Assembly: GCF_016793825.1 (NCBI RefSeq)
Contig: NZ_JAEULM010000027.1
Span: forward strand, 1-62,481
Direction of reading: 5' to 3'
Length of the DNA stretch: 62,481 bases
DNA from: Sphingopyxis sp.
GTDB lineage: Bacteria > Pseudomonadota > Alphaproteobacteria > Sphingomonadales > Sphingomonadaceae
The stretch's first letter is position 1; each line of letters begins with the position of its first letter. Below, in pieces: positions 1 through 20,175 of the stretch. A program made the translations under genes and the position numbers. The notes under the pieces are model-generated. The model was not told the DNA's origin and ran no database searches. It was given only the letters and a program-made list of their open reading frames with translations.

Positions 1-243
1 AAGTTCTTCGCGGTGCGCGGCAAGCTCCGCAATGAACGCCTGCTCTTCGACGCTGCGCTTCTTGAGCACGGCTTCCACCTGGTCGGCGATACCCAAATTG
101 CATACGACAATTTGCGTTAGAAGCTCGTCGTCCTGCAGCCCGAATATAGCTTCCATAGTTTGCAGATGGAGCAGCGTTTGCGGGGGCGGGTTCCGGTGGT
201 ATATCGCTTGGTAGAGCCGGACGACGTTCGAGATCTTACTCAT
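1..243 (-). CDS. Partial CDS, hypothetical helical protein of the mobilization region
   Basis: Reading leftward from ATG at 243 the frame stays open to the window edge, giving 81 visible residues (begins MSKISNVVRLYQ). It is predicted to be mostly helical, with charged C-terminal residues. Its ATG overlaps the stop of the ParA-like gene in an ATGA, so the two are translationally coupled. I recognise no family. Its place directly after a ParA-like ATPase in a leftward operon facing a relaxase suggests a plasmid or transfer accessory protein, but that is inference from position only. Confidence 0.6.
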   Translation of the reverse strand, partial: MSKISNVVRLYQAIYHRNPPPQTLLHLQTMEAIFGLQDDELLTQIVVCNLGIADQVEAVLKKRSVEEQAFIAELAAHREEL

Positions 244-962
244 CAGAACAGCCCCCCCAACGCGTCTTCGACATCGCGCTGCCACATACGAAAGCGCGCG
301 CGGGTTCCTCGGGATAGGCCCGCATCGATCTGATCGAGACCCATGTTATCGGTGCGAAACTTGTCGTAGATGTGCTCGGGCAGCGCCGGACAGCAGAAGA
401 CATCGCCCCCAGTCTTCGCGACTGCTTCGAGAAGCTCGGCGTCGACGAGCACGAACTTTTGGGGCGGCCCGTGCCAGGCTGGGAGGTTGAGCAGCACGCG
501 GCCTGGCGGATCGCCGGCGAGCATGGCATCGAGCGTCGCGCGTGACGCCTGATCGAGGCCCATGGTCCAGATGATATCGACGTCGATATCGAGCGCGTCT
601 TCTTCATCCTCGATCGCGAAGCGGATGAACTCGTGGACCCGATCAAGATCCTCAAATCGCCCGCCGGGAACGTTGACGAGGATGTACGCGTCATCGGGCG
701 CGTCATCGATGATCGTGATGAGCTTCTCCTGATCGGATTCGTCACCCAGGTCGATCGGCTCGACGCGATGTCGATTGCCATAGGCATGTTCGATGTCGCG
801 CTGCGACAGGCTCGCTTCGATGAAGATGACGGGAATGCCGCGGTGCATGAGCGAATGTGCAAATGTTGCCAGCGTGCCGGTGCTGCCGACGCCGCCCTTC
901 TCCTTCTCGTAAAGCATGAGGCGCTTGCGCCGGTGCTCCTCAACCTGTTCTTTGGTCGACAT
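243..962 (-). CDS. ParA/MinD-like P-loop ATPase with degenerate Walker A
   Basis: This is a 239-residue protein. Near the N-terminus it has KGGVGST (residues 22-28), which matches the deviant Walker A of ParA/MinD/TraL-type ATPases (KGGVGKT/S). The signature lysine K22 is kept, but the P-loop lysine is serine (S27). The following text (FIEASLSQRDIEH, DDAYILVNVPGG) fits the beta strands of this fold. Proteins of this type partition plasmids or accompany relaxases in transfer regions. The ATG at 962 is preceded by GAAAGGAAG, a good ribosome binding site. It is second in a leftward operon, 75 bp after the 350-residue gene and coupled to the next. Loss of the lysine argues for weak or absent ATP hydrolysis. 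Confidence 0.7.
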   Translation of the reverse strand: MSTKEQVEEHRRKRLMLYEKEKGGVGSTGTLATFAHSLMHRGIPVIFIEASLSQRDIEHAYGNRHRVEPIDLGDESDQEKLITIIDDAPDDAYILVNVPGGRFEDLDRVHEFIRFAIEDEEDALDIDVDIIWTMGLDQASRATLDAMLAGDPPGRVLLNLPAWHGPPQKFVLVDAELLEAVAKTGGDVFCCPALPEHIYDKFRTDNMGLDQIDAGLSRGTRARFRMWQRDVEDALGGLF

Positions 963-1037
963 GGGTCACTTCCTTTCTGCGTTGAATAGTTTGGTCGCCT
1001 GGCCGCAGGGGTGCGGCTACCCGCGTGAAATGTGCGG

Positions 1038-2090
1038 TCATGATTTGGGCCTGCCGTGCTTGGCGTGCGCCTCGGCAAGACGTTGCCGGGCGTCGCCCTG
1101 CGATCGTGCTCGCCCGGCAAATCTCGCGGCGAGATTCGCCCCACGACCCGGCGCTGCGGCTTCGTTCGCCGTCCTTTGCGGAGACCGCGTCGAAGGGCTG
1201 TATGTTGCCTTGTCCGCGTGTTGCGCCGTTGTAACGGGCTGTTGCCGCGAGGGGACAGTGGGCGGCGGACCGGTAGGTGGCAAGGGAGCAGGCGGCGGCT
1301 CGGGGAACTGCTGCGACCCTGTGTGGAGCGTGTATCGATCGGCGACGGCGAAGTGCGCCTTGCGTGAGTAGCCCGCTGAGAGCAGACGCGTGATGATTTG
1401 ATTGAATATCTCAGGTCCATCATCAAGTTCGGCGAGGGCCGATAGCTTTGTCGCGATCGCGCCGACGTCGAGAGCGGTGCCGCGCATGGCCGCGAGATTG
1501 GTGATCGCCGCGGCCCACTGCTCTGGCCCGTTCGTCGAATTCAGGAGGATCTCAGCAATCTCGTCTGGAATATCGGCCGCAGTAATCTTGCGGCGGCGGA
1601 GCGAGGGTGCGCTTTTCTTTTGCTGACCCGGCGGTGCCGGTTCGGCAATGCATTCAGGCCCAATCGCTATTGTGACGGCGCGGATCCGGATAATAGCGAC
1701 CACGATGTTGAAGATGCGGGACGGCCAGACTAGGCCGGACGAGTTGAGGATCGCATCATGGAAAGATTTCTCAGCGTCCTCGAGTTCAAACACGAGCGCG
1801 TCATGGCGATACCGCGGATGGAGCCGCCAGGCGTTGAAACGCGGGACCGTCTTGCGGATCGCTTTACCGGTGATTTCTTGTAATAGCCTGTTTATACACG
1901 GGCCGAGCAGCGCGTGCGCCACAGCGCCATCGCGCAGTTCAGCGCCCGTCGCTCGCGATGCCTGATGCTGATCCACCGCGGCGTCGAAACCGGCGAACGC
2001 CGCTTCACACAATAGATTACCAATGGCATCAACAGCGTCGTCAAGGTAATCCAAATCGTCCTCCCGCACCGAGAAGACCGGGCCTCGCAA
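1038..2090 (-). CDS. Hypothetical protein of the mobilization operon (about 350 aa)
   Basis: This open frame is not explained by any other gene and has sensible composition: an acidic N-terminus (EDDLDYLDDAVDAIG), a mixed middle, then a proline-rich linker (about residues 255-285) and a basic tail. I recognise no domain. The frame opens with TTG at 2090; a GTG at 2069 is an alternative start, and neither has a strong ribosome binding site. It is the first gene of the leftward operon and diverges from the large relaxase, where relaxosome or transfer accessory proteins often sit. The function is not assigned. Confidence 0.55.
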   Translation of the reverse strand: MRGPVFSVREDDLDYLDDAVDAIGNLLCEAAFAGFDAAVDQHQASRATGAELRDGAVAHALLGPCINRLLQEITGKAIRKTVPRFNAWRLHPRYRHDALVFELEDAEKSFHDAILNSSGLVWPSRIFNIVVAIIRIRAVTIAIGPECIAEPAPPGQQKKSAPSLRRRKITAADIPDEIAEILLNSTNGPEQWAAAITNLAAMRGTALDVGAIATKLSALAELDDGPEIFNQIITRLLSAGYSRKAHFAVADRYTLHTGSQQFPEPPPAPLPPTGPPPTVPSRQQPVTTAQHADKATYSPSTRSPQRTANEAAAPGRGANLAARFAGRARSQGDARQRLAEAHAKHGRPKS

Positions 2091-2223
2091 ACAATCTCGC
2101 GGAGGCCTGACGAATCGGGCGGGCTACCATTTATGGTAATGTCAAAGCGATATCCACAATAACCGTTATTTTCGCATGTGGAAATATCGCAGGATGGTGG
2201 TCCATTTGTCACGGATAGCTCGG

Positions 2224-2343
2224 TGTAAGAGACCGTTGTTTCACCTTACATCCGCCATTTTCGTGTATGGTGAAACGAAAATCCCCTTACATTATCGATA
2301 GAGTTTCCAGCACAGGAGATTTTGAGATCCCCGAAGATGTAAG
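2224..2343. repeat. CTTACAT repeats and nested palindromes
   Basis: TGTAAG (2224-2229), CTTACAT (2245-2251), CTTACAT (2286-2292) and ATGTAAG (2337-2343) are copies of one word in both orientations. Between them lie GTTTCACC (2238-2245) with GGTGAAAC (2269-2276), and ATTTTCGT (2257-2264) with ACGAAAAT (2275-2282), both perfect 8-bp inverted repeats. This looks like a multi-site operator or relaxosome-accessory binding array. Which protein binds is unknown; the HTH protein at 6314 is one candidate. Confidence 0.5.
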
Positions 2344-2452
2344 CTATATTCGATGCGGGCTTACTTGTTTTGCGCAATAGGCTAACCTCCCATTCTTCGA
2401 TTGTGGAAGTTAGCAGCAACATGATATCCTTCGGATTAGGAAGGTCGGTTTC

Positions 2453-2509
2453 GCTCGGGACTTCCCGAGCGGGCGCCTGCCGCGGGCTGGTGGGAGGGGC
2501 GCAGCCCGC
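2453..2509 (+). repeat. Two hairpins immediately upstream of the relaxase gene
   Basis: Hairpin one is GCTCGGG (2453-2459), loop ACTT, CCCGAGC (2464-2470). Hairpin two is GCGGGCTG (2482-2489), a 12-nt loop, CAGCCCGC (2502-2509). Both stems are perfect. They end 23 bp before the relaxase ATG. This arrangement fits a relaxase recognition hairpin in an oriT, or mRNA structure controlling relaxase translation. Confidence 0.5.
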
Positions 2510-2532
2510 CCTGGAAGCGTGGACTGGAGATC

Positions 2533-5500
2533 ATGGATCCGATCGGAACTTTTCGCAGGCGCGCAGCAAAGCGGATCATCCGCGACTTGCCGCTCGACCT
2601 GGCGGAGACCGAACTCGATGATCCGTTGGGGCTCCTGCGCGGCAAGGTCCGAGCGAGCCTCGATTCCGCGCAGCGCTGGGAGCGCGGGAAGGCGGCTCCT
2701 GCCCGGCGCGCCTGGTTCGGCATTCCGAGCGTGCCGGACATATCGCGGCTGACGAGCGTGGCGGGGGAGCGCAGCTTCCACCTGGCGCGCAACGTCACCC
2801 GCGAGCGAGCGGCGGCCGCCTTCGATGATTATGCGACCGGTAAGATCGGCGATGCGAATGCGGAGCCGGAAATGGCGGCAGAGGAGCGGCCCGCTGCGAC
2901 GTTCGACCGCTACACGCAGGATCATGGCCATGACGATCGCCAGGTCCTCGTCACGACGCTCGATCCGGATCCGGTCAAGCGAGCCAGGCAGTGGGACGCG
3001 GTCGAAGCGCATGAGTTCGGTCGGCGCAAGAATAAATCCGCCGGACCGCCGCGTCTCAACATCAGATATGAAATCGCGCCTGCGTTTCTGGCGGGCGCTG
3101 CGCTTCGCGCCGATTGTCCCGAAGGTCTGCGTCACATTCTCAACGCCGAGCAGAGGCGGGTGGATGGCGGCAAGGCGCTCGGCAAAAAGCGCCAGTCGGT
3201 TGGTGTGCCGTGGATCGATCCGGAGGCGCCTGCCGCGCTGAAGTGGCTCGCGGCGCTGCCCGGCTGGCCGGATGCGGATCCGCCGGTGAAGCTCAGCGAA
3301 GGTCGCGGCAGCTATGCGGTCATTGCGGGCGAGGCGGAGCTGCCCGCCGATCTCGACGGCGCGGCGCACGAACGCATTCTCGTCGGTGCGAACGCCTGGG
3401 TGCAATCGCTCGCCAAATCCGAAAGCGGCGATGCTGACGCAAATCGGGTCGTGCCCGCCCTGTTCGTGCGGCATGAACCCGACGCGCTCAATAACCTGAC
3501 GAACTGGCACCTGCACTTCCAGGTCGGTAAGCGTGCGGTGTCCATCGATGGCGACGGTGAACTGGCGTTCGACGCCCACGTCGTGCCGCAAATCGCGACC
3601 AGCTTCATGAAGCCGTTCCGCTGCGAGATCGCGCGACTCGTCAACGTCGAACTGAAGGCCACTGACGCTGACTATCGGCTCTCGCCAGAAACCTATGCGA
3701 AGATGGGGCTCGACGCGCAAACCATGCGTAAGGTCGGCGGCAAGGCCACCGTACTCGAACGCGCGGGAGATACGCCGGATGTGTCGCTCGACAATGCAGC
3801 GATCGGCTGGGCGCGCGTGCTTGCGCAGCACGTGGCGAAGCGCGAGGCGGATTTGGCGAATGCTGATACCGCTTTCGAATTTCGCGAAGCGCGCGTGCGC
3901 GAAGTCCGCACTTCGGATGAGCGTGACCGGCTGGACCGGCTCGCGCGCGAGCTTCGCGATCGCGAGCATGCCGCGATCCGGCTGCGCGCTGAGGCCGCCG
4001 AGATCGAAACGCTGTGCGCTATGGCGCGCAGCCATCCGCGTATCGTTGCGCAATTTGCTCCGGGCTATGCAGACAAGGCGCGGAAGGACGGACACGATAC
4101 CTACCTGTCGCACGCGTGGACCCGGCGGGGTAACGAGGCCGAAGCCTATCTCGATGAACTCGAACGGGAGTTGGTCGTTGAACAGGCCGCGATGGCCGAG
4201 CGTCGCGAGCAGGCGATGCTTCTTGAACGCAGCGCTGCCGATCTTCGCGAGCGCCTCGAGCAAGACCTGGGTCTTGCGGTCCAGAATGCAGAGCCGACCC
4301 GCGTGATCGACGCAATTTTGTCACGTGAGCCCCGCACTCAAACCATCCTCGACCCCAATGCGGTGATGCAGCGCATCGCCGAGACGCCGCTCCTGCTCAG
4401 CGACGTCGACGGACACCTCGTGGTCCTCCCGGCCGACGATCCTCAGGATTTGATCCACGGCGTCGATCTGAATGCCGCGCCCTATCGAAAGCGGCTTCCG
4501 GCGATCCGCGATGCCCAGCAGAAGGAACTCGCCCAAGTCGGCGCGTTGCTGACCAAGCGCGGGCCGGCAGGTTTGGATGATGATAATCTCGTCGACAAAA
4601 GCGCCTGGCTGCAAAAGGCGGTGAGGCGCTGGCGCGACACTCCCGAGATGGGGCGGCGGATCAAATTGCGCGATCTCCGCATTAAGGCAGTCCGTAAAGT
4701 CGCGTCAGGCCGCAAACGGGAGGCCGACCAGGAGTTTGCACTGTCGCCGCCTCGCGCGCTCGATCAGCCCTTACCGACCATTGCATCGCTCGGCGCACGC
4801 GGACTCGATATGGTGGGGCTGGGCGAGATCACACCTGGCCGCGAACCACAGCCGGTGCCCGCATGGCTCTCACCGCGCGCAGAACTGCCGCGAGAATATG
4901 ATATTTCCGCTCACGAAACTGTCCCCGTCGCGGCGAAGCAGGCGACGACTTTGCGCGATGTTCGCCGTGATGACTATCGTCCTATCCATCACAACGGGCG
5001 GGAACAGTTTGCTGATCTGTATGAGCGGCTTGCCGACACCTCAATCAATGGGCCATTTCCCGACAGACCGACCAATGACCAGCTTCAGGCGCTTCGATCG
5101 GTGATCGAAACTTATCCTGTTCGCATCGCGCGCTGGCGCGGCGCGCTGCAGATCGATGTGCGCGACGACCCTCGCGACTGGTTCGATACTCCGTATATCC
5201 GGGGCACCGCGGGTCAGGACCTGTTGTCCTCGATCGTCGATAAGCGTGTGCAGATGTTCAGGAACCTGCCCGATATCGATCCGGCGCGCCGGCCAACGGC
5301 TTGGGACGTGGAACAGAAGCGACGGGCATCTTGGCTTGATCGACCTGCCACGCACGTCGCGCCGGTGCCTGCCGAATTGATGGACACATATCAGGAAACC
5401 GACCCTGCCGCCCTGTGGCGCCGTGCGCCTGTCCCTTTCCTGTTCGCGCGGCGTGCGGATGCCGAGGCACCGGACACGGTGAAGACGCTGCGCCACGCCC

Positions 5501-5937
5501 TCGGACCTCGCGCCGCGTGGCTGACACGGCCCGACATACGCGCCCGCACCCGCGCCGCCTGGTTCGTCCAGCAGGAGACGCGGAGCGATATCCTGCATGA
5601 TCTTATGGTCGATTCCGGCTTGCTGCCAGCCGCGCCGCTGCGTGCAAACGAAGCGGACCGCTTTCGGCACATGGGCGATCTGCTGCTCGACGAAGAGTGG
5701 CTGCTGGTCAAGCGCGGTTCGGTGCGGTTCGATCCGCCGAAGGAGGCGGATCGGTTGAAGCGCGCGTTGGCATCGGCTCGATCCAGCGAGGATATGGCGG
5801 CTGCCGCGGCGATCATGGCGTTCGGGATCAAGCGGCGAACAGCGAAACAAAATGCGAAACGGTCGAAGCCATCTAAGGGCCGTCATCCCTACGATCGCGG
5901 GCTGCCCGGCCGAGAGCCCAGCGGGCGCGGACGCTGA
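2533..5937 (+). CDS. Large divergent MobA/MobL (MobQ-type) relaxase-like protein
   Basis: The protein has 1134 residues. The N-terminal third can be laid over MobA/MobL relaxases: AAAAFDDYATGKIGD (Y100, candidate nicking tyrosine), a FDRYTQ segment like the family's DYTRK, QWDAVEAHEFGRRK like the helix W-NAVE--EKRK, then FVRHEP and NWHLHF (H326, H328) matching the metal-binding H...PHxH motif. Relaxases nick one strand at oriT and lead it into the recipient. The rest (about 400-1134) has a charged helical region (about 440-590) and no primase or helicase motif I can see. A GGAG ends 3 nt before the ATG. The family call rests on motif order, not on overall similarity. Confidence 0.6.
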   Translation: MDPIGTFRRRAAKRIIRDLPLDLAETELDDPLGLLRGKVRASLDSAQRWERGKAAPARRAWFGIPSVPDISRLTSVAGERSFHLARNVTRERAAAAFDDYATGKIGDANAEPEMAAEERPAATFDRYTQDHGHDDRQVLVTTLDPDPVKRARQWDAVEAHEFGRRKNKSAGPPRLNIRYEIAPAFLAGAALRADCPEGLRHILNAEQRRVDGGKALGKKRQSVGVPWIDPEAPAALKWLAALPGWPDADPPVKLSEGRGSYAVIAGEAELPADLDGAAHERILVGANAWVQSLAKSESGDADANRVVPALFVRHEPDALNNLTNWHLHFQVGKRAVSIDGDGELAFDAHVVPQIATSFMKPFRCEIARLVNVELKATDADYRLSPETYAKMGLDAQTMRKVGGKATVLERAGDTPDVSLDNAAIGWARVLAQHVAKREADLANADTAFEFREARVREVRTSDERDRLDRLARELRDREHAAIRLRAEAAEIETLCAMARSHPRIVAQFAPGYADKARKDGHDTYLSHAWTRRGNEAEAYLDELERELVVEQAAMAERREQAMLLERSAADLRERLEQDLGLAVQNAEPTRVIDAILSREPRTQTILDPNAVMQRIAETPLLLSDVDGHLVVLPADDPQDLIHGVDLNAAPYRKRLPAIRDAQQKELAQVGALLTKRGPAGLDDDNLVDKSAWLQKAVRRWRDTPEMGRRIKLRDLRIKAVRKVASGRKREADQEFALSPPRALDQPLPTIASLGARGLDMVGLGEITPGREPQPVPAWLSPRAELPREYDISAHETVPVAAKQATTLRDVRRDDYRPIHHNGREQFADLYERLADTSINGPFPDRPTNDQLQALRSVIETYPVRIARWRGALQIDVRDDPRDWFDTPYIRGTAGQDLLSSIVDKRVQMFRNLPDIDPARRPTAWDVEQKRRASWLDRPATHVAPVPAELMDTYQETDPAALWRRAPVPFLFARRADAEAPDTVKTLRHALGPRAAWLTRPDIRARTRAAWFVQQETRSDILHDLMVDSGLLPAAPLRANEADRFRHMGDLLLDEEWLLVKRGSVRFDPPKEADRLKRALASARSSEDMAAAAAIMAFGIKRRTAKQNAKRSKPSKGRHPYDRGLPGREPSGRGR

Positions 5938-6313
5938 AGGCCTCATTGTCAGGAAATCATGCTCCTTGTATCGACTCTCACCCCCAAGACGACGCGAACA
6001 CAGTCGCGCGTTCTCGTAATTCTGTTTGGCCGAGATGGCGCGCTCGCACAGAGGATTCCGATTACCCAGAGAAACTTCGCAGCTATATTAAAGATTTATT
6101 CATCTTTAGGGTCTATATGCCCGGCACAGTTGCGAACATGCGGCGGGGATAGCATCCCAAGTCGGTGACCTATGAATTTGTGATTCGCGCCAATTTTCGA
6201 GCTCCGCATCTGCTGATGCGGGCTTGAATGGCGTTCGAGGTCATGAATGAACCAGCCTAAACATTGCTGCCAAGCAGCCATGGCTTCGCTCGCCGAGCGA
6301 GGAAACCATAGCC
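5938..6313. other. Intergenic, 376 bp, with two small inverted repeats
   Basis: I see no convincing gene. TAAAGAT (6089-6095) pairs with ATCTTTA (6102-6108) in an AT-rich stretch. CCGCATC (6204-6210), loop TGCT, GATGCGG (6215-6221) can be extended by a T-G wobble and three more pairs. Neither is followed by a T run. TCGCTCG/CGAGCGA sits at about 6287-6301, next to the start of the HTH-Dam gene, where self-regulation is plausible. Confidence 0.4.
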
Positions 6314-7432
6314 ATGGGAAATGCACAGAACACAAAGCCGTCGAATAAATTATCCCTTACATCCCCCGCACTCCCCCGCGGTTCGGATGTCTGGGCAAAC
6401 GCTTCTCCTTCCGGGCTGTCAGCGGCAAAATTGCCGTTCGGCGGCAAATCGTCGAATTGCATCGGTTCGAAGGTTAGTAGCGGTTCGGCCGGATCGTCAG
6501 TCCGCCCGGAGCCTGGAGGCGAAAGTTGTGCTAACCTAATTGTTGAATTGCGCGAAGCGCGCGTATCAAAGGGTTGGTCGCGAAAGGTCATGGCCAAGCA
6601 TGTCGGAGTGTCGCCCCAGACAATTACGCGGCTCGAAAAGGGTGTCGGCACCGTGTCAACGCTTGTGGCGGTAATGGACTCAACCAATTTCATGCTGACA
6701 GGTCTGAGTGCCGGTAAGACGCTGTTCGAAAAGCTCCGCAACACCCGTATCAAACATGGAAAGTCGCTGGAGAATTTGGTTAGGCGAACCGGACTGTCGC
6801 ACACGGCCATCCTCGACCTCGAAAATGGTGCGGGATCAGTTGAAGACTTGCTGCGCCTGCTGGCAGCGCTTGCGCCGAGAGCTCGGCGTCAAGCTCCCGC
6901 TCGAGCGTATTGGGCGCTGGGTCAGAAGGAAGATCGTGATTCCCGCTTCACCCCGCCAGATTTCATGGACAATATTTATAAAGCGTTTGGCGAAATAGAT
7001 CTCGATCCATGCGCTCACGAACTCAGCCCTGTCCTGGCGCGCCGTAAGATATTGGCCAGTAGGGGCGGCGACGGACTTAGCCAGACATGGTCAGGGCGTC
7101 TCGCTTTCGTCAATCCGCCGTACTCATGTGCCCTGCAGTGGCTACGGCGAGCTCATGAGCAATGGTCAGCTGGCCACGTTGCCACCGTTGTGTGCCTCGT
7201 TCCGGTCAGAACAGATTCGGCATTTTTCCACGAGGTTTTGAGCTTGGACGCCGATATCTTCTTTCTTAAAGGGCGCGTCAAATTCCTGAAACCGGACGGG
7301 GCGGCGCAGCAAACGCCCTTCAGCCTTATGGTGTTAACCCTTGGAGCAAACGCAGAACAGCGAGCTCGCTTTGCGCAATTAGCAGCCGGATTCTGGTCGC
7401 GAAGGCGTCAGCCAAATGACACTGACCTCTAG
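6314..7432 (+). CDS. Double XRE-type HTH fused to phage-type DNA N6-adenine methyltransferase
   Basis: The protein has 372 residues. After a low-complexity N-terminus there are two Xre-like helix-turn-helix units (about 75-120, LREARVSKGWSRKVMAKHVG; about 137-185, LRNTRIKHGKSLENLVRRTG). Residues about 205-355 match the phage/plasmid Dam family: TPPDFMDNIYKAFGEIDLDPCAH, then DGL--TW, then catalytic NPPYS (N267-Y270). This family methylates adenine N6 in DNA. GAGGA precedes the ATG by about 10 nt. It stands alone between hairpin-bearing gaps. The fusion suggests a protein that binds a defined site and methylates it, or represses its own promoter. Confidence 0.72.
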   Translation: MGNAQNTKPSNKLSLTSPALPRGSDVWANASPSGLSAAKLPFGGKSSNCIGSKVSSGSAGSSVRPEPGGESCANLIVELREARVSKGWSRKVMAKHVGVSPQTITRLEKGVGTVSTLVAVMDSTNFMLTGLSAGKTLFEKLRNTRIKHGKSLENLVRRTGLSHTAILDLENGAGSVEDLLRLLAALAPRARRQAPARAYWALGQKEDRDSRFTPPDFMDNIYKAFGEIDLDPCAHELSPVLARRKILASRGGDGLSQTWSGRLAFVNPPYSCALQWLRRAHEQWSAGHVATVVCLVPVRTDSAFFHEVLSLDADIFFLKGRVKFLKPDGAAQQTPFSLMVLTLGANAEQRARFAQLAAGFWSRRRQPNDTDL

Positions 7433-7927
7433 CGGGAAGGCGTAAACCTCGAAACGGAGCTTAAACCCGGCGAGGGTCTCGATAACGTGCGGTATGCCGC
7501 CATCGATACCCTCGCCGGGTCGCATGCGCTGATGATGGGGTTTCTTGTAGAGCTCGCGTTCTTGAGCAAGTGAACGGGGGCGCTGCGTTCGGGGCAGTCT
7601 CGCTCAGTCTGAGCCCATTGGCTCCTAGGCTCTAACGACCAAAATAGTCGAAGTGGCGTTCCCAGTTCGCTGTTGGGAAGCGGGCGGCGAGTTCAACGGG
7701 CTTAGAATTGATTGTCTAAGTGTCAGAAAGGCCTGCTGCTCAAAATCAAAATCACCCATTCGGTGAAACCGCAGAACGGCCTCGCATGTCCGCCGGATGG
7801 AAAAGCGGGACGCGGCTGCGCGCCCGCCAAGCGGTGGAGACGCTGACGCGGGAAGCGAGGAACAGGGTGAAAGGAAAAGAGGCAGGAGTTCTGTCTCGGA
7901 TCCCTGATCCTCCGAAAGGAGAATATC
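7433..7927. other. Intergenic, 495 bp, with one long inverted repeat
   Basis: No supported gene lies here. The main structure is the perfect 13-bp repeat at 7465-7520. Short open frames on both strands in 7720-7920 have biased arginine/serine composition and conflict with the better-supported gene starting at 7928, so I leave them out. The stretch could be remnant element DNA. Confidence 0.4.
7465..7520. repeat. Perfect 13-bp inverted repeat with 30-nt loop
   Basis: ACCCGGCGAGGGT (7465-7477) pairs exactly with ACCCTCGCCGGGT (7508-7520). Allowing one mismatch, TCGAT inside the left arm pairs with ATCGA inside the right arm, for about 19 bp. It follows the stop of the HTH-Dam gene by 32 bp with no T run, so it may be a factor-dependent terminator, an mRNA 3' stabiliser or a binding site. 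Confidence 0.55.
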
Positions 7928-8692
7928 GTGAACGAGTATCAACTTCCCAAATGCCTGCAGGTGATCGGTCTGGCATGCATTCCCGTCAACGACATACCAG
8001 ACCAGCATCCGGCGCTGGCACGCAGGCCGGTTGCGGCGGCGGTCCTGACGATGGTCGATCAAGATGATGGTCATCGCTGGATCAACACGATCTGCGTCTC
8101 CGACGCGCGCAAGTCGGAAATCCCATTGCCGCACTTGCTCGACAAGACACTGTTGCCCGGCGTGGTCCAGATCGCGTCCATGGCCGATCGCATGACGCTG
8201 GCGATGGACGCGATGAGCCGGCGCTTCTTCGTCGAGCCGGCTCTTGCAGAACTCTGCTTTGGCGAGACGGCTATCGATCCCGCCGCGATGGGTGACCATG
8301 GGTTCGATGAGCGAACAGCGTGCCGTCGTTTCTCGATCCCGATGCCCGAGATCGGCGATGCGGACATCGAGCTTGCCTGGTCGCGCTCGGCGCCTGCGGC
8401 AGCCGAAGACCATGCGCTGCGCGTCGCGACCGCACGCTTGATGCTGTGGGCGCATGTCGAGGCGTTCCGCATCGCGCGACCGGAACCCTTCTTCGAGATC
8501 ATGCTGGCCCTGCGCGACTGGATCGATGCCAGCGAGTATCTCAAGGCCGCGCTCGCCGATATCGGGAACTCACGCCCAATCCGCCGTGCAGACTCTTTCG
8601 CGCATCATTATCGCGACTATCGACAACGCCTTGCTGCGGGCGACGAAACCGCGAGATGGGTCAGCTTCGAGGACGGCCTGTTCCACGCCTGA
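7928..8692 (+). CDS. Hypothetical protein of the accessory region (254 aa)
   Basis: It begins with GTG at 7928 behind GAAAGGAG (7914-7921), a strong ribosome binding site that decides the start. The protein is acidic, soluble and well balanced (for example IPMPEIGDADIELAWSRSAPAAAEDHALRV), with no signal peptide or membrane span. I do not recognise a family or catalytic motif. It lies between the HTH-Dam gene and the short relaxase on the same strand, so an element-encoded accessory role is likely, but nothing in the sequence says which. Confidence 0.65.
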   Translation: MNEYQLPKCLQVIGLACIPVNDIPDQHPALARRPVAAAVLTMVDQDDGHRWINTICVSDARKSEIPLPHLLDKTLLPGVVQIASMADRMTLAMDAMSRRFFVEPALAELCFGETAIDPAAMGDHGFDERTACRRFSIPMPEIGDADIELAWSRSAPAAAEDHALRVATARLMLWAHVEAFRIARPEPFFEIMLALRDWIDASEYLKAALADIGNSRPIRRADSFAHHYRDYRQRLAAGDETARWVSFEDGLFHA

Positions 8693-8730
8693 GCGCGCCT
8701 AACGCGTAAACTCACTATCGATGAAAAAAT

Positions 8731-8765
8731 GGCCTCGCTGCTCGGGTCGCGCGAGCAGCGAGGCC
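8731..8765 (-). terminator. 14-bp hairpin, intrinsic terminator in leftward orientation
   Basis: GGCCTCGCTGCTCG (8731-8744) pairs perfectly with CGAGCAGCGAGGCC (8752-8765) around a 7-nt loop. On the leftward strand it is followed by ATTTTTT, a proper U tract, so it should stop antisense transcription from the right. On the plus strand there is only a preceding A tract. The flanking genes are both rightward. Confidence 0.6.
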
Positions 8766-8972
8766 TGCGAGCGTGCATATGCACAACGCTTCGCATGCGA
8801 CGGGCCGCTGTCATGCCCGTCAGGGCACGGTCTAGCGACCAGCTTTAAATATCCGGTGAATCGACGTCCAGCAGCCACTGCGGCGCCGTCTCTCCGTCCC
8901 ACCATCAAACCCAAATCAGCAAGCGGACCGCTGCGATGCGGTCCCTTTGTCCTTTGTAGAAAGACGTACCAA

Positions 8973-9617
8973 ATGACGACCATCCATAACATCCGCCCGT
9001 TCAACACTCGATATGTAATCCGGGAACGCTCAAGCCGCTACACGCCCGAACTCTTGCGCACGCACCGCACGGCGCAGGCGAGCTATGCCTACATCAACCG
9101 CCAGAATAGCGTTGATGAATGGGGTCCGACGCCGAACTGGGCGTCGCGCTCCGACCTTGCGGCGGCGGGCCGATGTGCTCCTGCCCGCGCCGCCGGACCC
9201 AAGCTGTCGGGGATCGCGCTCTGGGCACAAGCGGACGAGAATGCGCTCCGGTATCGGCCCGACGAGCCGACAATCGCGCATTGCGTTGGCAGCTTGCCGC
9301 GCCATGAGGACCTCGCCTTCTGGCGCAATCTGATCGAAGGCTTTGCCGAGGATTATCTCGTGGCCCGCGGCATGGTTGTAGACTGGGCGATCCATCATCA
9401 AGCGGAAGGCGACGATCAGCCCGAAATTGCGCCGCACGTCCATCTCCTCATCACCTTGCGAGGATATGACCCCGAGCACCGCGATTACGGCAAGGTCCGG
9501 CAGAACTGGCTGCGGACGGACAACTCTCGCAAGCGCCTGGCCGAGCGTTGGTGGGACCGTACCGGAATCGTCCCGCCCGAATATGTCATGGCAGCGACAG
9601 CGCAAAAATCCCGCTGA
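8973..9617 (+). CDS. Short MobQ-like relaxase-domain protein (214 aa)
   Basis: Starting at ATG 8973, because the upstream extension is basic and contains the hairpin, the protein runs through the MobA/MobL signatures: SYAYINRQN (tyrosine region), ALWAQADENALRYRPDEPTIAHCVGSLPRHEDL cut here to its landmarks LW, E, R and LP, then GMVVDWAIHH and APHVHLLITLRGYD with H155 and H157, the PHxH metal motif. The domain ends soon after it, at about the length of a bare catalytic domain. There is no helicase or primase part. It should bind and nick oriT DNA or be a decayed relaxase. Its ribosome binding site is weak. It is much closer to the family consensus than the large protein at 2533. Confidence 0.68.
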   Translation: MTTIHNIRPFNTRYVIRERSSRYTPELLRTHRTAQASYAYINRQNSVDEWGPTPNWASRSDLAAAGRCAPARAAGPKLSGIALWAQADENALRYRPDEPTIAHCVGSLPRHEDLAFWRNLIEGFAEDYLVARGMVVDWAIHHQAEGDDQPEIAPHVHLLITLRGYDPEHRDYGKVRQNWLRTDNSRKRLAERWWDRTGIVPPEYVMAATAQKSR

Positions 9618-9677
9618 GATCGTGTCGGCACCGAGCACCGGTAACGCCCGGTGCCGACCACCCTGAATATCGCATTG

Positions 9678-9729
9678 CCTGTTCTGGCTTCTGAAGGAGC
9701 GGATAGCGAGGCCTTCAAGCCAGAACAGG
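9678..9729. repeat. 13-bp inverted repeat upstream of small membrane protein gene
   Basis: CCTGTTCTGGCTT (9678-9690) pairs perfectly with AAGCCAGAACAGG (9717-9729). GAAGG/CCTTC lies just inside the arms, giving about 18 bp with a small bulge. A second smaller repeat, GCACCGG/CCGGTGC, sits at about 9637-9656. They lie between the short relaxase stop and the next gene, and could be a terminator or leader structure. Confidence 0.5.
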
Positions 9730-9778
9730 AGAGAAATTGAGCGGAGAGGGTGATCTGAAGATCGGAGGAGAAAATAGA

Positions 9779-10051
9779 ATGTTTATCGTTGAACTAACTG
9801 CTGTAGTCATTGCCGCGTATGTCACGGCCCTCGTTATGCGCGAAATGCCGCGCCTGTTTGCATTGCTCATCGTCCGGATCGCCGACCGGCTGTCGGCAGC
9901 TAGGCACACTCAGATCGTGGAAGCGGTTAGCGGTCGCCAAGTCCCAGCGAATTGGACCGCGGCGTCGGAAGATCGGAAGTTGTTGCGCGCCGGCATGCGC
10001 TCGACGATGCGTATGGCGACGTTTCGTTCGCTCTATCCGACTAATCGCTAA
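9779..10051 (+). CDS. Small inner-membrane protein (90 aa)
   Basis: The ATG at 9779 follows GGAGGA (9764-9769) at a good distance; a longer frame from 9737 is possible but lacks such a site. Residues 1-18 (MFIVELTAVVIAAYVTAL) and the next hydrophobic stretch up to about residue 37 look like one or two membrane spans. The rest is basic (RKLLRAGMRSTMRMATFRSL). No family recognised. Small membrane proteins of this kind are common in transfer regions, but no specific role is shown. Confidence 0.5.
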   Translation: MFIVELTAVVIAAYVTALVMREMPRLFALLIVRIADRLSAARHTQIVEAVSGRQVPANWTAASEDRKLLRAGMRSTMRMATFRSLYPTNR

Positions 10052-10064
10052 GGGAATCTGCTGA

Positions 10065-10101
10065 GCCCAGGCGTCGGCAATCGAATTGCCGACGCCTGGG
10101 C
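10065..10101. terminator. 17-bp perfect hairpin between convergent genes
   Basis: GCCCAGGCGTCGGCAAT (10065-10081) pairs exactly with its complement at 10085-10101 around a CGA loop. It begins 13 bp after a rightward stop and lies before a leftward gene end, where a two-way terminator is expected. There is no T run on either side, so termination may need Rho or the stem may protect 3' ends. Confidence 0.6.
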
Positions 10102-10237
10102 CAGCCGGATATGTCATTATGCGAGCCCCATATCAGGGGTTCATCAGATGGCAGGTGTTCGCTCGCGCCATGATACTTATTTCGTCTCCAATCGGGAGCG
10201 CGGCCTTGCCAGCGACCTCTCGTTGCGCCCAGGGAGA

Positions 10238-10723
10238 TCAATGAACCCTGACATAAGGATTGGGATCGCATGCCATGATCTGCGGCATCAGTGACAGGAT
10301 CTTACGCGCCATTTTGATCCGATCAGCCCGATGGTCCAACGGGATTTCCAATACCCGACAAAGTGCCGCATCGTGATAAGCGAAGCCGAAATCCGCGCCC
10401 TTGGGAACTATCAGAGCCGGTCCTTCCCTGGAAAGAACCCATACCGAGCATCGAGGCCACGTCTTCACTTTACCGTCATAGGTCTCATAAACCGCGATAT
10501 TGGCGGGTCCACGGCGTTCCTTCCCGGGCTTGAAGGCAAGCACAATCAGGTCTTTGTTGGCTTCTTTTACCGCCTGCTCAAAACCATGCTCATTCCCTGC
10601 TTCAGCAACAGTGAATGCAGCCTCTCTGAAAGGGATCCCGTCTACTTCTCGTCTAAGGGTTATCATCCTGCCGAGACAAATCAGGAAATCCATCGCAATT
10701 TCTCGATTAAAACTGGTCTTCAT
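10238..10723 (-). CDS. Hypothetical protein at right edge of accessory region (161 aa)
   Basis: On the reverse strand AAGGAG is followed by two in-frame ATGs at 10729 and 10723; the spacing favours 10723. The product is mixed-charge, soluble and has no recognised domain (contains AVKEANKDLIVLAFKPGKE and GKVKTWPRCSVWVLS). Codon use looks less GC-extreme than the core genes, in keeping with acquired DNA. It faces the small membrane protein gene across a 17-bp hairpin. The function is unknown. Confidence 0.6.
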   Translation of the reverse strand: MKTSFNREIAMDFLICLGRMITLRREVDGIPFREAAFTVAEAGNEHGFEQAVKEANKDLIVLAFKPGKERRGPANIAVYETYDGKVKTWPRCSVWVLSREGPALIVPKGADFGFAYHDAALCRVLEIPLDHRADRIKMARKILSLMPQIMACDPNPYVRVH

Positions 10724-11414
10724 TCTCATTCTCCTTGGAGCTAATGTTCAAAGCTCGTCGGACGAGATTATTCCGCCGACCCTGAGTTATAGGATCGTCG
10801 AAAGCTGCTCCCAAGCTACTCAGAATTTTTTTTTCATTTATTCGAATTTCGATAGATCTGGGCGCAACGTAATGGGCGCCCGACCGCACCAAGGTTGACC
10901 CCACTTAGATTCTGGGATCATCATCGCGGCGCTGCTGCCTAGGTGAATGGACGTGCTTGGTCGTTGCTAAGGTAAGTTGGCGCCGCTGATTGAGGTGCAG
11001 TCGCCGCACAGGCAGCCGTTTGTTTAAGGATTAACCTAGTGGACGCGGAGCGATGGGCGATCTCTGTGGTAGGACAGGGCGTGCGAGGCGGGGTAGCTAC
11101 GGGGAAAATGCCTTCATTCGAGCGAGATCAGGCGACGTGCCACGTCCGAATTACGGCTACCGCACGGCTGTCACAGCGCGCAGCAAAAGACCCTGAGCGC
11201 CTGCATGGGAACGCCGCACCGATGTTCTATTGCGGTTGGTCTGTGATGCCACTAACTGTAGCCAGTGAGTGTAGCCAGTCGCAACTGGTGCCACGCGAAA
11301 TTGGCCGAAAACAGGGCTTTTTGGGGTGCAGCTTTTCCTTAGGTGAGGTTCCTGCCGCCCCAGCCAGCCGGTGTTTTCCTTGATATCTGGTGAAAGTCGT
11401 CGGCGTTCCCGCCG
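10724..11414. other. Intergenic, 691 bp, probable right border of the accessory region
   Basis: No gene here is supported; the one open frame of 114 codons (11039-11383) has no ribosome binding site and implausible composition. The stretch contains a T9 run near 10826-10835 after a weak stem, a direct repeat TGTAGCCAGT (11257-11266 and 11270-11279), and CCAGT-CGCA-ACTGG right after it. To the right, genes become core-like. No tRNA or integrase was found, so the junction cannot be placed exactly. Confidence 0.4.
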
Positions 11415-12998
11415 CTAATCGCCGCGCTGGAGTGTCATCGCCAATTCCTCGACGTCGAGGTCGCGTTCCAGTTCGTGGAGAACCTCGTCCTCGATCAGCC
11501 CCGCGCGATGCAGTCGGATCAGTTCGGCCCGGCCGGCAGCGATTGCCTGGAGCAGCACGTCGAAATGCGAACGCAGCCCATCCATCGCGGTGCTCGCATC
11601 GGCTTCGTAACGCTCCATGAAATTCATCCGCTTGCGATGCTCCTCCAGCATCATCGGATGGATCAGCGTGCCATCTTCGTCATAGGACAGTCTTTCGATA
11701 ACCGCGAAACGTGCGCGCGCCATTGCGGCCTCGGCCGCGGGCATCGCCATTTTCGCCGGCGGATCGGTGTCGACCGGCTGCACGCGGCGAATGAGCATGC
11801 CGAGGCTGGAACCCTGCGCGACCACGGTTACAAAGATCACCGCAAAGGCGCAGATCAGCATCAGGTCGCGACCGGGCATGTCGATGGGCAGGGTCAATGG
11901 AACCGCCAGCGTCACGACACCTCGCATCCCCGCCCAGCTCAAAACGGTTGCCTGCCGCCAGCCGAGCGGGCGCGCGCGTTTCAGCCCGATCTTGCGCGCG
12001 GTCTCGAGAATGGCTTCCGACGCAAAGATCCAGACGAAACGCGCAATGGTGACGGTGATCACGACCGCGGCCACGACGATGATCGTCGATGCAGGGATCG
12101 CTCCGATTCCGCCGATCCGCTCGATCGCGCCGCGCAGGGAAAAGCCGATCAGGATGAACACCAGCGCTTCGAGGATGAAGACCATGATGAACCAGCCCGA
12201 ATTGGCGCGAAGGCGGACGTCCGCGGGCAGTATCTCATGCTGATACCAGCCGAGGGCGAGGCCCGCGGTGACGGTCGCGATCACGCCCGAGACATGCACC
12301 GCTTCGCCGGCGAGATAAGCCGCCCAGCAGAGCAGGATCGTAATGAGCATGACCAGCATCGGGTCGCGCAGACGTCTGGCGAGGAACACCCAACCAGCCG
12401 CAACAATGGCGCCGACGATCACGCCGCCGATCGCGACGAACGCGAAGCTCCGGATCGCTTCGCCGGTGTGGAACACCCCGCTGAGGGTCGCCGCGACCGC
12501 AAAGCGAAAGAGGATCAGGCCGGTCGCATCGTTGAGCAGGCTTTCACCCTCCAGCAGCGCTTCGAGCCGACGTGGCAGGTGGACGCCTTTCAGCACGGCG
12601 CGGGCCGACACCGCGTCGGGCGGCGAGACGATCGCGCCGAGTGCGAAGCAGGCCGCCCACGGCAGGGCCGGAACGATCCAGTGTACGACGACCCCGACGA
12701 CGAGGGTGGTGAAGACCACGGCGCCGACCGCGAGTGACAATATGCCCGGAAGATGGCGCCGGAAACGGCCGAGTGCGGTGAAATAGGCGCCGTCCATCAG
12801 GAGCGGCGGCAGGAACAGAACCAGCGCCAGTTCGGGGTCAAGCGAAATGGCCGGCAGCCCAGGAATGAAAGCGAGCCCTCCGCCGCCGACCAGCAGGGCT
12901 GTAGCGGGCGGCCATCGCAGCTTCAGCGCCAGCCAGTGGAGCGCGATGACCAGCGCCAACAGTCCGAGAACAAGCTCGAAGGCTTCTACCGCGTGCAT
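11415..12998 (-). CDS. CPA1-family Na+/H+ antiporter
   Basis: The protein has 527 residues with about 12 hydrophobic spans, then a soluble C-terminal domain of about 120 residues. The CPA1 (NhaP/NHE) landmarks are clear: GAIVSPPDAVSA, EGESLLNDATG with the ion-binding ND pair, and SWAGMRGVVTLA. It exchanges external protons for internal Na+ or K+ across the inner membrane, supporting pH and salt balance. It reads leftward from ATG 12998 and ends at TAG next to the accessory border. No operon partner is apparent. The ion preference cannot be read from the sequence. Confidence 0.9.
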   Translation of the reverse strand: MHAVEAFELVLGLLALVIALHWLALKLRWPPATALLVGGGGLAFIPGLPAISLDPELALVLFLPPLLMDGAYFTALGRFRRHLPGILSLAVGAVVFTTLVVGVVVHWIVPALPWAACFALGAIVSPPDAVSARAVLKGVHLPRRLEALLEGESLLNDATGLILFRFAVAATLSGVFHTGEAIRSFAFVAIGGVIVGAIVAAGWVFLARRLRDPMLVMLITILLCWAAYLAGEAVHVSGVIATVTAGLALGWYQHEILPADVRLRANSGWFIMVFILEALVFILIGFSLRGAIERIGGIGAIPASTIIVVAAVVITVTIARFVWIFASEAILETARKIGLKRARPLGWRQATVLSWAGMRGVVTLAVPLTLPIDMPGRDLMLICAFAVIFVTVVAQGSSLGMLIRRVQPVDTDPPAKMAMPAAEAAMARARFAVIERLSYDEDGTLIHPMMLEEHRKRMNFMERYEADASTAMDGLRSHFDVLLQAIAAGRAELIRLHRAGLIEDEVLHELERDLDVEELAMTLQRGD

Positions 12999-19904: not shown

Positions 19905-20175
19905 TTAGGGTCAGGACCCATTCATTCCGCGTTCGAGGCGTCGAAATGGCGAAGATATCGGGCCTGTTCGGATGCAGCGGGTAGCATCGCTACCCGCAAG
20001 GCCGCGCAGGTTCGAGATCGAAGCCATTTCGGCGTCCCTGCGGGATTTGATCGATTTTGCCCATGGCTTCGTCAAAAAGTCTGGAAATATCGCCCATATT
20101 CCTGCGCCTTTTCTCCTCGCCCTGAACAAAATCGCTTCAAACCTCGATCGTGGAATGAATGGGTCCTGACCCTAA
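19905..20175. mobile_element. MITE-like element with 34-bp terminal inverted repeats
   Basis: The ends are inverted copies over 34 bp with two mismatches: left 19905-19938, right 20142-20175. Each tip reads TTAGGGTCAGGACCC then ATTCATTCC. The 271-bp element codes for no plausible protein. Inside, GCGGGTAG/CTACCCGC forms a tight stem near 19976-19997 and CGAAATGGC/GCCATTTCG pairs across the left half. No clear target duplication beyond the symmetric tips was seen. It lies between the TetR gene and the next rightward gene. Confidence 0.65.

What the first reader, a model, noticed from the sequence alone, without database searches (positions are those of the whole stretch)
2533..9617. Two different MobQ-like relaxases in one element
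The region encodes both a 1134-residue protein with a displaced but ordered set of MobA/MobL motifs (Y100 region, W-NAVE helix, H326-L-H328) and a 214-residue protein that is little more than the relaxase domain (H155-V-H157). No other transfer gene is visible. A bare relaxase domain together with a very large divergent one suggests a two-protein nicking system, or a substitution in progress. I know of no named system with this layout.
Basis: partly seen in the sequence, partly recalled or inferred. Interest (0 to 1): 0.75.

Follow-up and report, generated by a model that had tools for sequence, protein, structure and literature searches.

The report
Islands pairing constant and exchangeable relaxases
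A mobile stretch of DNA in Sphingopyxis bacteria carries two DNA-nicking transfer enzymes, a small one that stays the same between related islands and a large one that is swapped for an unrelated type, so the two probably do separate jobs.

Summary
The window (a Sphingopyxis contig) encodes two MobQ-class HUH relaxases. The 214-aa protein matches PF03389 directly. The 1134-aa protein does not pass alone, but its relatives do, its family profile finds R1162 MobA first in the PDB, and its model's Foldseek ranks 1-12 are all relaxases.

Both belong to a family of islands. In 60 sampled Sphingopyxis genomes the small relaxase is full length at 12 places, each with one of two large relaxases upstream, never both: the 1134-aa type at 6, an unrelated TraI/MobP type at 6. 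On the tree of the constant part the two types are scattered. Another genus keeps the pair. Both genes are under purifying selection (dN/dS 0.06 and 0.23). Each has a conserved structured non-coding region upstream.

Partner exchange argues against a dedicated two-subunit nickase. I favour two separate systems: an exchangeable large relaxase with its own oriT-like repeat, and a constant small relaxase with its own site. Two relaxases in one element are known; this arrangement I did not find in seven library searches. No function was tested.

The parts
1..285 (-). Accessory gene of the left operon, cut by the contig start
   Evidence: 41% in G094 (L014), 52% in L092, 94% in L097; no family hit
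243..962 (-). ParA-like ATPase (EKEKGGVGSTG P-loop, by eye), divergent from the large relaxase; present in 3 of 8 Sphingopyxis copies that carry the large relaxase
   Evidence: 91% in L092, 93% in L097, 51% in G094; no hit in L013, L093, L096, L098, L116; Pfam MipZ/AAA_31 only sub-threshold, E 0.06-0.09
1038..2090 (-). Accessory gene next to the candidate oriT (start uncertain)
   Evidence: 88% in L092, 86% in L097, 33% in G094; no family hit for the 217-aa stretch tested
2368..2460 (.). Candidate oriT of the large relaxase: inverted repeat (arms 2381-2386 and 2409-2414) with conserved flank; also the point where homology to four other copies begins
   Evidence: paired changes in 8 copies; homology edge at 2368 in L013, L093, L096, L098; same arms upstream of the G094 homologue, by eye
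2533..5937 (+). Large divergent MobQ-class relaxase, 1134 aa; HUH domain within about residues 70-440
6314..7432 (+). HTH plus Dam-type N6-adenine methyltransferase gene, an optional insert
   Evidence: PF05869 6.1e-16 and HTH_3 1.7e-13; present in G042 and L097, partly in L116; no hit in L092, L093, L096, L098
7721..10063 (+). Constant module around the small relaxase, as seen from the window
   Evidence: blastn against 11 loci: left edge 7721-7761 in 10 of 11 (L097 goes on to 6190), right edge 10038 or 10063 in 8 of 11 (L095 and L096 go on, L092 stops at 9757 near its contig end); other copies share more among themselves to the right
7928..8692 (+). Conserved gene of unknown function, 254 aa; truncated in L116
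   Evidence: 94-98% in 11 of 11 loci, 40% in G094, 96 of 254 residues left in L116; no family hit
8731..8865 (.). Conserved non-coding stem-loop region upstream of the small relaxase (arms 8731-8743 and 8753-8765)
   Evidence: 12 full-length and 8 short places in 60 genomes, plus 2 cut by contig ends in G042; DNA folding z -4.4 for 8715-8975; arms nearly invariant in 14 rows, no covariation
8973..9617 (+). Small single-domain MobQ relaxase, 214 aa
   Evidence: PF03389 2.6e-13, NF041496 2.9e-13; family profile hits 4ht4 at 1.5e-9; dN/dS 0.064
9737..10051 (+). Small conserved gene with a hydrophobic stretch (by eye); real start probably 9779
   Evidence: 68-96% in 10 of 11 loci

Best explanation
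This is part of an integrated, probably mobilizable genomic island of Sphingopyxis with two separate relaxase systems. (1) An exchangeable part: a large relaxase reading away from an inverted-repeat, oriT-like site at 2368-2460. What lies left of that site is itself exchanged (a ParA-like operon in the window and 2 other copies, another gene or no ParA homologue in 5), and in half of the islands the whole part is replaced by a TraI/MobP relaxase with its own ParA-like neighbour. [quoted passage not shown] VirB4-like genes occur elsewhere in this genome). (2) A constant part: a 254-aa gene, a stem-loop region and the 214-aa MobQ relaxase. The small relaxase would nick its own site, most likely the stem-loop region directly upstream, whichever large relaxase is present, giving a second way to start strand transfer or to copy the excised island. 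Shown: both are relaxase-family proteins with conserved catalytic motifs under purifying selection, the small one is constant among the islands compared, the large one is exchanged, and each follows a conserved structured non-coding region. Inferred: nicking, the identity of each nic site, excision, export, and the small relaxase's role.
For: 12 of 12 full-length close small-relaxase places in 60 genomes have one of the two large relaxases upstream, 6 MobQ-type and 6 MobP-type, never both. Alternative relaxase: PF03432 2.2e-13, NF041893 TraI_MobP 5.5e-41 though below that model's cutoff. Large-relaxase type needs 4 changes on the tree of the constant module, at least 2 forced by well-supported branches. 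Same order with both relaxases in another genus, two extra genes between. Inverted repeat: 90.5% of cells paired against at most 47.6% when slid, 4 cells changed on both sides. Stem-loop at 20 places. dN/dS 0.064 and 0.23. HUH fold of the large relaxase. VirB4-type hits in the same genome.
Against: Pairing is not universal: distant small relatives in G126 and G029 (39% and 35%) have no homologue of the large relaxase nearby, and the second, inferred small copy of G042 has none in the 18 kb before it. The stem-loop also occurs at 8 places without an adjacent small relaxase, behind a 293-aa exonuclease-type gene, so it need not be the small relaxase's site. The inverted repeat could be a regulator's operator; two of its five covariation measures do not exceed shuffles (128 and 500 of 500 reach them). 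No integrase, att site or excision evidence was found for the Sphingopyxis islands; in G094 an integrase-like gene (DUF6538 1.6e-16, Phage_integrase below cutoff) lies by tRNA-Glu about 25 kb away, but no repeat of 14 nt or more marks the ends. The G249 and G252 MobP loci are identical over 19.9 kb, so the 12 places are not all independent. No nicking or transfer data exist.
Confidence: 0.5

Rival explanations
1. Two-protein nicking system: small and large relaxase form one relaxosome, the small one supplying a catalytic domain and the large one DNA binding and export.
For: A large relaxase is upstream at 12 of 12 small places and the pair keeps its order in another genus.
Against: The same small relaxase (92-99% identical) is paired with an unrelated MobP relaxase at 6 of 12 places; the large relaxase keeps its own HUH histidines and its own upstream inverted repeat, so it does not look catalytically dependent.
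Confidence: 0.12
2. The small relaxase is a replication or maintenance protein (RCR-initiator-like) of the excised island, or drives movement of the 2.3-kb module, and is not used for conjugative transfer.
For: Single HUH domain with a stem-loop next to the gene; sharp module edges; assembly evidence for a repeated copy in G042 without a large relaxase before the second copy; distant relatives in G126 and G029 without a homologue of the large relaxase.
Against: By family it is a MobQ relaxase, not a Rep or transposase family; 12 of 12 full-length copies in the sampled genus sit beside a transfer relaxase.
Confidence: 0.22
3. History only: two mobilization modules met by cointegration, and the small one persists as a passenger.
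For: A two-relaxase plasmid is explained this way in the literature (P. savastanoi pC, passages read); modular edges at 2368, 7721-7761 and 10038-10063; a decayed small gene exists in G224.
Against: Median dN/dS of 0.064 over 76 pairs and 12 of 12 pairing do not fit a passenger; G094 shows the pair is old.
Confidence: 0.12
4. The stem-loop at 8731-8865 is an RNA-level or regulatory element of the downstream gene and not a nic site (compatible with any of the readings above).
For: It lies right after a stop codon and before unrelated downstream genes (the small relaxase, or in several loci a 166-aa gene) in two island types.
Against: The arms stay almost identical instead of covarying and no Rfam family matches; neither excludes regulation.
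Confidence: 0.35

Closest known systems
MobQ / MobA_MobL relaxases (PF03389, NF041496), e.g. MobA of R1162 (2ns6) and the S. aureus nicking enzyme (4ht4)
   Same: HUH histidines, upstream Tyr, W..VE helix; the large family's profile finds 2ns6 first and the small family's finds 4ht4
   Different: Small: only the nuclease domain (214 aa). Large: extra residues before and inside the nuclease domain (by eye) and about 700 further residues with no recognised domain
TraI/MobP relaxase (NF041893, PF03432 + TraI_middle)
   Same: Occupies the same position in 6 of 12 islands, reading away from a ParA-like gene
   Different: Different relaxase class; not in this window
Two-relaxase IMEs of streptococci (IME_Class_10, MobT+MobV; PMC5357655, passages read)
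   Same: Two relaxases of different families in one integrative mobilizable element without coupling protein
   Different: Streptococci; RCR-type MobT partner; no exchange of one partner for another class in the passages read
P. savastanoi plasmid pC (MOBP+MOBQ; PMC9791958, passages read)
   Same: Two functional relaxases of different classes on one element, the MOBQ one mobilizing only pC
   Different: Plasmid with two Rep genes, interpreted there as a cointegrate of two plasmids
ICEclc-family ICEs with MOBH+MOBP relaxases (PMC10732049, passages read)
   Same: Second relaxase of another class in an integrative element
   Different: ICEs with a complete conjugation system; two such ICEs reported there

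Membership tests
MobQ relaxase (small protein) | Profile match to PF03389 | tested here: met
   50.7 bits against cutoff 26.7; NF041496 2.9e-13 but 50 bits, below its equivalog cutoff of 200
MobQ relaxase (small protein) | HUH histidines and upstream catalytic Tyr | tested here: met
   H141, H155, H157 and Y40-I-x-R43 invariant in 7 of 7 rows
MobQ relaxase (small protein) | HUH fold by structure | tested here: inconclusive
   AF2 model failed, mean pLDDT 37.7, 5 near-identical rows
MobQ relaxase (large protein) | Profile match to PF03389 | tested here: inconclusive
   Window protein E 0.016, below cutoff; with it 22 of 23 alignment members match at E<=1, best 7.2e-16, other members' values not listed; Erythrobacter relative 6.2e-16; G094 homologue no match
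MobQ relaxase (large protein) | HUH histidines | tested here: met
   13 rows: H314, D317, N324, H326 invariant, H328 nearly; 23 rows: H314, N324, H326, H328 invariant, D317 nearly
MobQ relaxase (large protein) | Catalytic Tyr upstream of the HUH motif | tested here: inconclusive
   Y127 invariant in the 23-row alignment but not in the 13-row one; Y100 in neither; alignment poor in that stretch
MobQ relaxase (large protein) | HUH relaxase fold | tested here: met
   AF2 model of residues 58-480, mean pLDDT 69.9; Foldseek ranks 1-12 all relaxases, 4ht4 probability 1.00, 2ns6 0.99, but best E only 2.5e-3
MobQ relaxase (both) | Site- and strand-specific nicking at oriT | not testable with these tools
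   needs protein and DNA
Integrative and mobilizable element | Relaxase and/or oriT, no T4SS of its own | tested here: inconclusive
   Relaxases and oriT-like repeat present; no VirB4 hit on the window's contig, but the contig starts inside the element; no T4SS gene seen by eye in the gene lists, one of which was cut in output
Integrative and mobilizable element | Integrase and attachment sites | tested here: inconclusive
   Integrase-like gene by tRNA-Glu in G094, no att repeat there; no close homologue of it in the window or in most loci compared
Two-subunit nicking system | Fixed partner pair | tested here: not met
   Large partner is MobQ-type at 6 and MobP at 6 of 12 places

The most novel reading that the evidence does not exclude
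A single-domain MobQ relaxase is the constant core of a family of chromosomal islands and works at its own stem-loop origin, while a second, large relaxase with its own oriT is a replaceable part drawn from unrelated relaxase classes: a dual-origin mobile element in which one transfer enzyme is fixed and the other is swapped, perhaps to match whichever secretion system is at hand.
Probability: 0.35. Interest if true: 0.7.

Novelty: new variant of a known kind. Interest (0 to 1): 0.5.

Why it matters
Why mobile elements keep more than one relaxase is open (one paper read in passages calls it intriguing and cites under 2.6% of 11386 plasmids with more than one). Here the question becomes testable: nearly identical small relaxases sit with two unrelated large partners in related strains, so the contribution of each can be separated by single deletions. 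It also gives two candidate transfer origins in Sphingopyxis, and shows that a 1134-aa protein below the cutoffs of standard family models is a relaxase, so mobility surveys that rely on such models could miss it.

Tried and rejected
Large protein as a non-relaxase: rejected. Small protein as a degraded fragment: rejected by conserved motifs, purifying selection and near-constant length, 210-215 aa in 13 sequences; a remnant (last 60 aa) does exist in G224. The 298-aa ORF as the true gene: rejected. Pair absent from G042: I read this as an assembly effect, because four contig ends (C3, C5, C6, C7) stop at window-equivalent 8852 or 9575, as expected for a collapsed repeat; this is an inference, the small gene itself is not in that assembly. 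Stem-loop as an Rfam RNA: none at gathering scores in window 1-12000; exact pattern in viral contigs: none; region in plasmids: none. Direct profile-profile match of the two relaxase families: probability only 2.3%, E 0.02, over the HUH stretch, so their kinship rests on each matching MobQ, not on each other. Relatives in viral contigs: none for either protein. Plasmids: large relaxase 1 weak hit, small 5 weak hits, in 72,556 records. Att repeats in G094: none of 14 nt or more in the 48 kb examined. Structure of the small protein: model unusable.
Full report
What is in the window. The window is a whole contig (G000:C24). Its genus is Sphingopyxis by inference: contigs of same-genus genomes G042, G258 and G278 have the lengths of named Sphingopyxis records. 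The 1134-aa ORF lies at 2533-5937 + and the 214-aa ORF at 8973-9617 +. To the left on the minus strand are a ParA-like gene and two accessory genes, one cut by the contig start. Between the two relaxases lie an HTH-Dam methyltransferase gene and a 254-aa gene of unknown function.

Are both relaxases? The small protein matches PF03389 (E 2.6e-13) and the MobQ model (2.9e-13, below that model's cutoff). A profile of 7 rows finds the nicking enzyme 4ht4 at 1.5e-9. Its AF2 model failed, so its fold rests on sequence. The large protein whole hits nothing significant. Its only plasmid hit is an Erythrobacter protein of similar length annotated MobA/MobL (1e-6), which matches PF03389 at 6.2e-16; the G094 homologue does not. 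A scan of the genome collection gave 23 loci with relatives. Alignment A2 holds 22 of those 23 (L137 left out) and the window; H314, N324, H326, H328 and Y127 are invariant in it. Of its 23 members 22 match PF03389 at E<=1, the window at 0.016. The A2 profile finds R1162 MobA (2ns6, 1.3e-4) and 4ht4 (0.013) first in the PDB; the next two hits (0.2) are unrelated. The AF2 model of residues 58-480 has mean pLDDT 69.9; Foldseek ranks 1-12 are all conjugative relaxases (4ht4 probability 1.00, 2ns6 0.99), though no E-value is below 1e-3. I take the large protein as a divergent MobQ-class relaxase. That stretch aligns poorly.

Co-occurrence and exchange. In 60 genomes of the genus, drawn evenly from a larger group, the small relaxase is full length at >=92% identity at 12 places in 11 genomes, the large one full length at >=86% at 7 places in 7 genomes, and a 674-aa TraI/MobP relaxase at >=89% at 6 places in 6 genomes. 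Surroundings of the 11 small places other than the window were fetched and compared (gene lists, whose output was cut in the middle). Each of the 12 places has one of the two large types upstream and none has both: large MobQ at G000, G252 (467 kb), G258, G278, G282, G298; MobP at G249, G250, G251, G252 (3.85 Mb), G277, G281. The G249 and G252 MobP loci are identical over 19.9 kb, so independent places number at most 11. The seventh large relaxase (G042) runs into a contig end at window-equivalent 8852; a second contig also ends there and two others at 9575, as a collapsed repeat holding the small gene would give. The second of these G042 copies has no large relaxase in the 18 kb before it, only an IS-type gene and the last 30 residues of the 254-aa gene. 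A further copy (Sphingopyxis sp. H073, L116) has both relaxases and a truncated 254-aa gene. In another genus (G094) a 41%-identical small relaxase lies downstream of a large one of 40-42% identity over its first 760 residues, with homologues of the left operon and the 254-aa gene and two extra genes between. Against a universal pair: small relatives in G126 (39%) and G029 (35%) have no homologue of the large relaxase within the 19 kb fetched.

The tree of the shared module (13 rows, 12 different) needs four changes of large-relaxase type, at least two forced by well-supported branches; the label is no more clustered than in shuffles (216 of 500 as low). Six of nine inner branches are weakly supported and recombination within the module is likely, so this shows repeated exchange, not its exact number. 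Median pairwise dN/dS is 0.064 for the small gene (13 sequences, 76 pairs) and 0.23 for the large (8 sequences, 28 pairs).

What travels with the large relaxase. The ParA-like operon is found with it in the window, L092, L097 and G094, but not in L013, L093, L096, L098 and L116: 3 of 8 Sphingopyxis copies. L013, L093 and L098 carry a different gene there, and L096 shares that stretch with L093. So the left side is itself exchanged, and the ParA-like gene is not a fixed partner.

Non-coding structures. Homology to L013, L093, L096 and L098 starts at exactly 2368. Just inside this edge is an inverted repeat. In 8 copies (7 distinct) 90.5% of cells pair against at most 47.6% when the partner is slid; 4 cells at 2 pairs are changed on both sides and 0 of 500 shuffles reach the covariation score, but two other measures do not exceed shuffles (128 and 500 of 500). 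L098 has a shifted, longer stem and G094 keeps the same arms at the matching place, both by eye. This fits an oriT beside a relaxase gene; an operator is not excluded. Upstream of the small relaxase a region with a 13-bp perfect stem is conserved full length at 12 places and in its first ~150 bases at 8 more; as DNA 8715-8975 folds better than shuffles (z -4.4). Its arms hardly vary in 14 rows, so there is no covariation evidence. At the 8 further places it follows a 293-aa gene (RNase_T exonuclease where tested, L103) and has no small relaxase next to it. A relaxase-like gene lies upstream at L103 (PF03389 3.4e-15) and L105 (1.4e-4, below cutoff); similar genes are seen by eye in L102, L106, L108 and L071, none in L104 and L107. 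The region may be a nic site used by more than one system, or a regulatory element.

How it likely works. The constancy of the small relaxase across two unrelated large partners is the main mechanistic clue: it does not need the 1134-aa protein. I think the large relaxase and its oriT-like repeat are an exchangeable mobilization part, and the small relaxase is a core function of the island with its own site. VirB4-like hits elsewhere in the genome could supply export in trans. Whether the small enzyme serves transfer or replication of the excised island is open.

Known or new. Two relaxases in one element are known (passages of PMC5357655, PMC10732049 and PMC9791958 read). A link between partition-type proteins and transfer is reported for NAH7 (PMC12421886, abstract and outline). 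Seven searches of the paper library listed no paper whose title or abstract start describes these Sphingopyxis islands or a constant small relaxase with an exchanged large partner; the library lacks most subscription journals. I rate it a new variant of a known kind.

Noticed in passing
window 19906-20174: 269-bp element, 91% identical to G042 C6 (L068 13135-13402), whose two 33-bp ends match each other inverted: MITE-like.
   Followed up: no
window 10065-10101: Perfect palindrome with 17-bp arms at the right edge of the constant module; seen in L096 and matched on both strands in G042 C3, absent in L095.
   Followed up: partly
window 6314-7432: HTH-Dam methyltransferase fusion, an optional insert in 4 of 8 Sphingopyxis copies with the large relaxase (one partial); 47% relative in another genus (L020).
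   Followed up: partly
L102-L108 and L071 (own genome: G000:C47:42106): Second kind of locus with the same stem-loop but no small relaxase next to it: 293-aa exonuclease-type gene before it, and in several loci a MobA/MobL relaxase, a 166-aa gene and a PolB-type exonuclease.
   Followed up: partly
L014 5759-6685, L103 8717-9595 and 10457-11302, L053 13660-14562: 3'-5' exonuclease genes (PF10108 or PF00929; the L053 one by eye only) repeatedly neighbour these relaxases.
   Followed up: no
G000:C47:17-29 kb and G000:C43:410911: VirB4-like hits and, on C47, neighbouring T4SS-looking genes (by eye) elsewhere in the same genome.
   Followed up: partly
L092 2989-4466 (oriented), L055 9417-9752: Proteins rich in repeated L..LP.GL motifs beside the left operon of one island and beside the small-relaxase remnant in G224.
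   Followed up: no
L091 12469-13293 and equivalents; L057 10406-11128: Methylase-like protein (YYTRQHVAQKLY...EPSAGTGSFF) downstream of the small relaxase in several islands, and one alike by eye near the integrase in G094; no Pfam hit for the L091 copy.
   Followed up: no
L100 and L101: G249 and G252 share a MobP-type island and flanks 100% identical over 19,901 bases.
   Followed up: no
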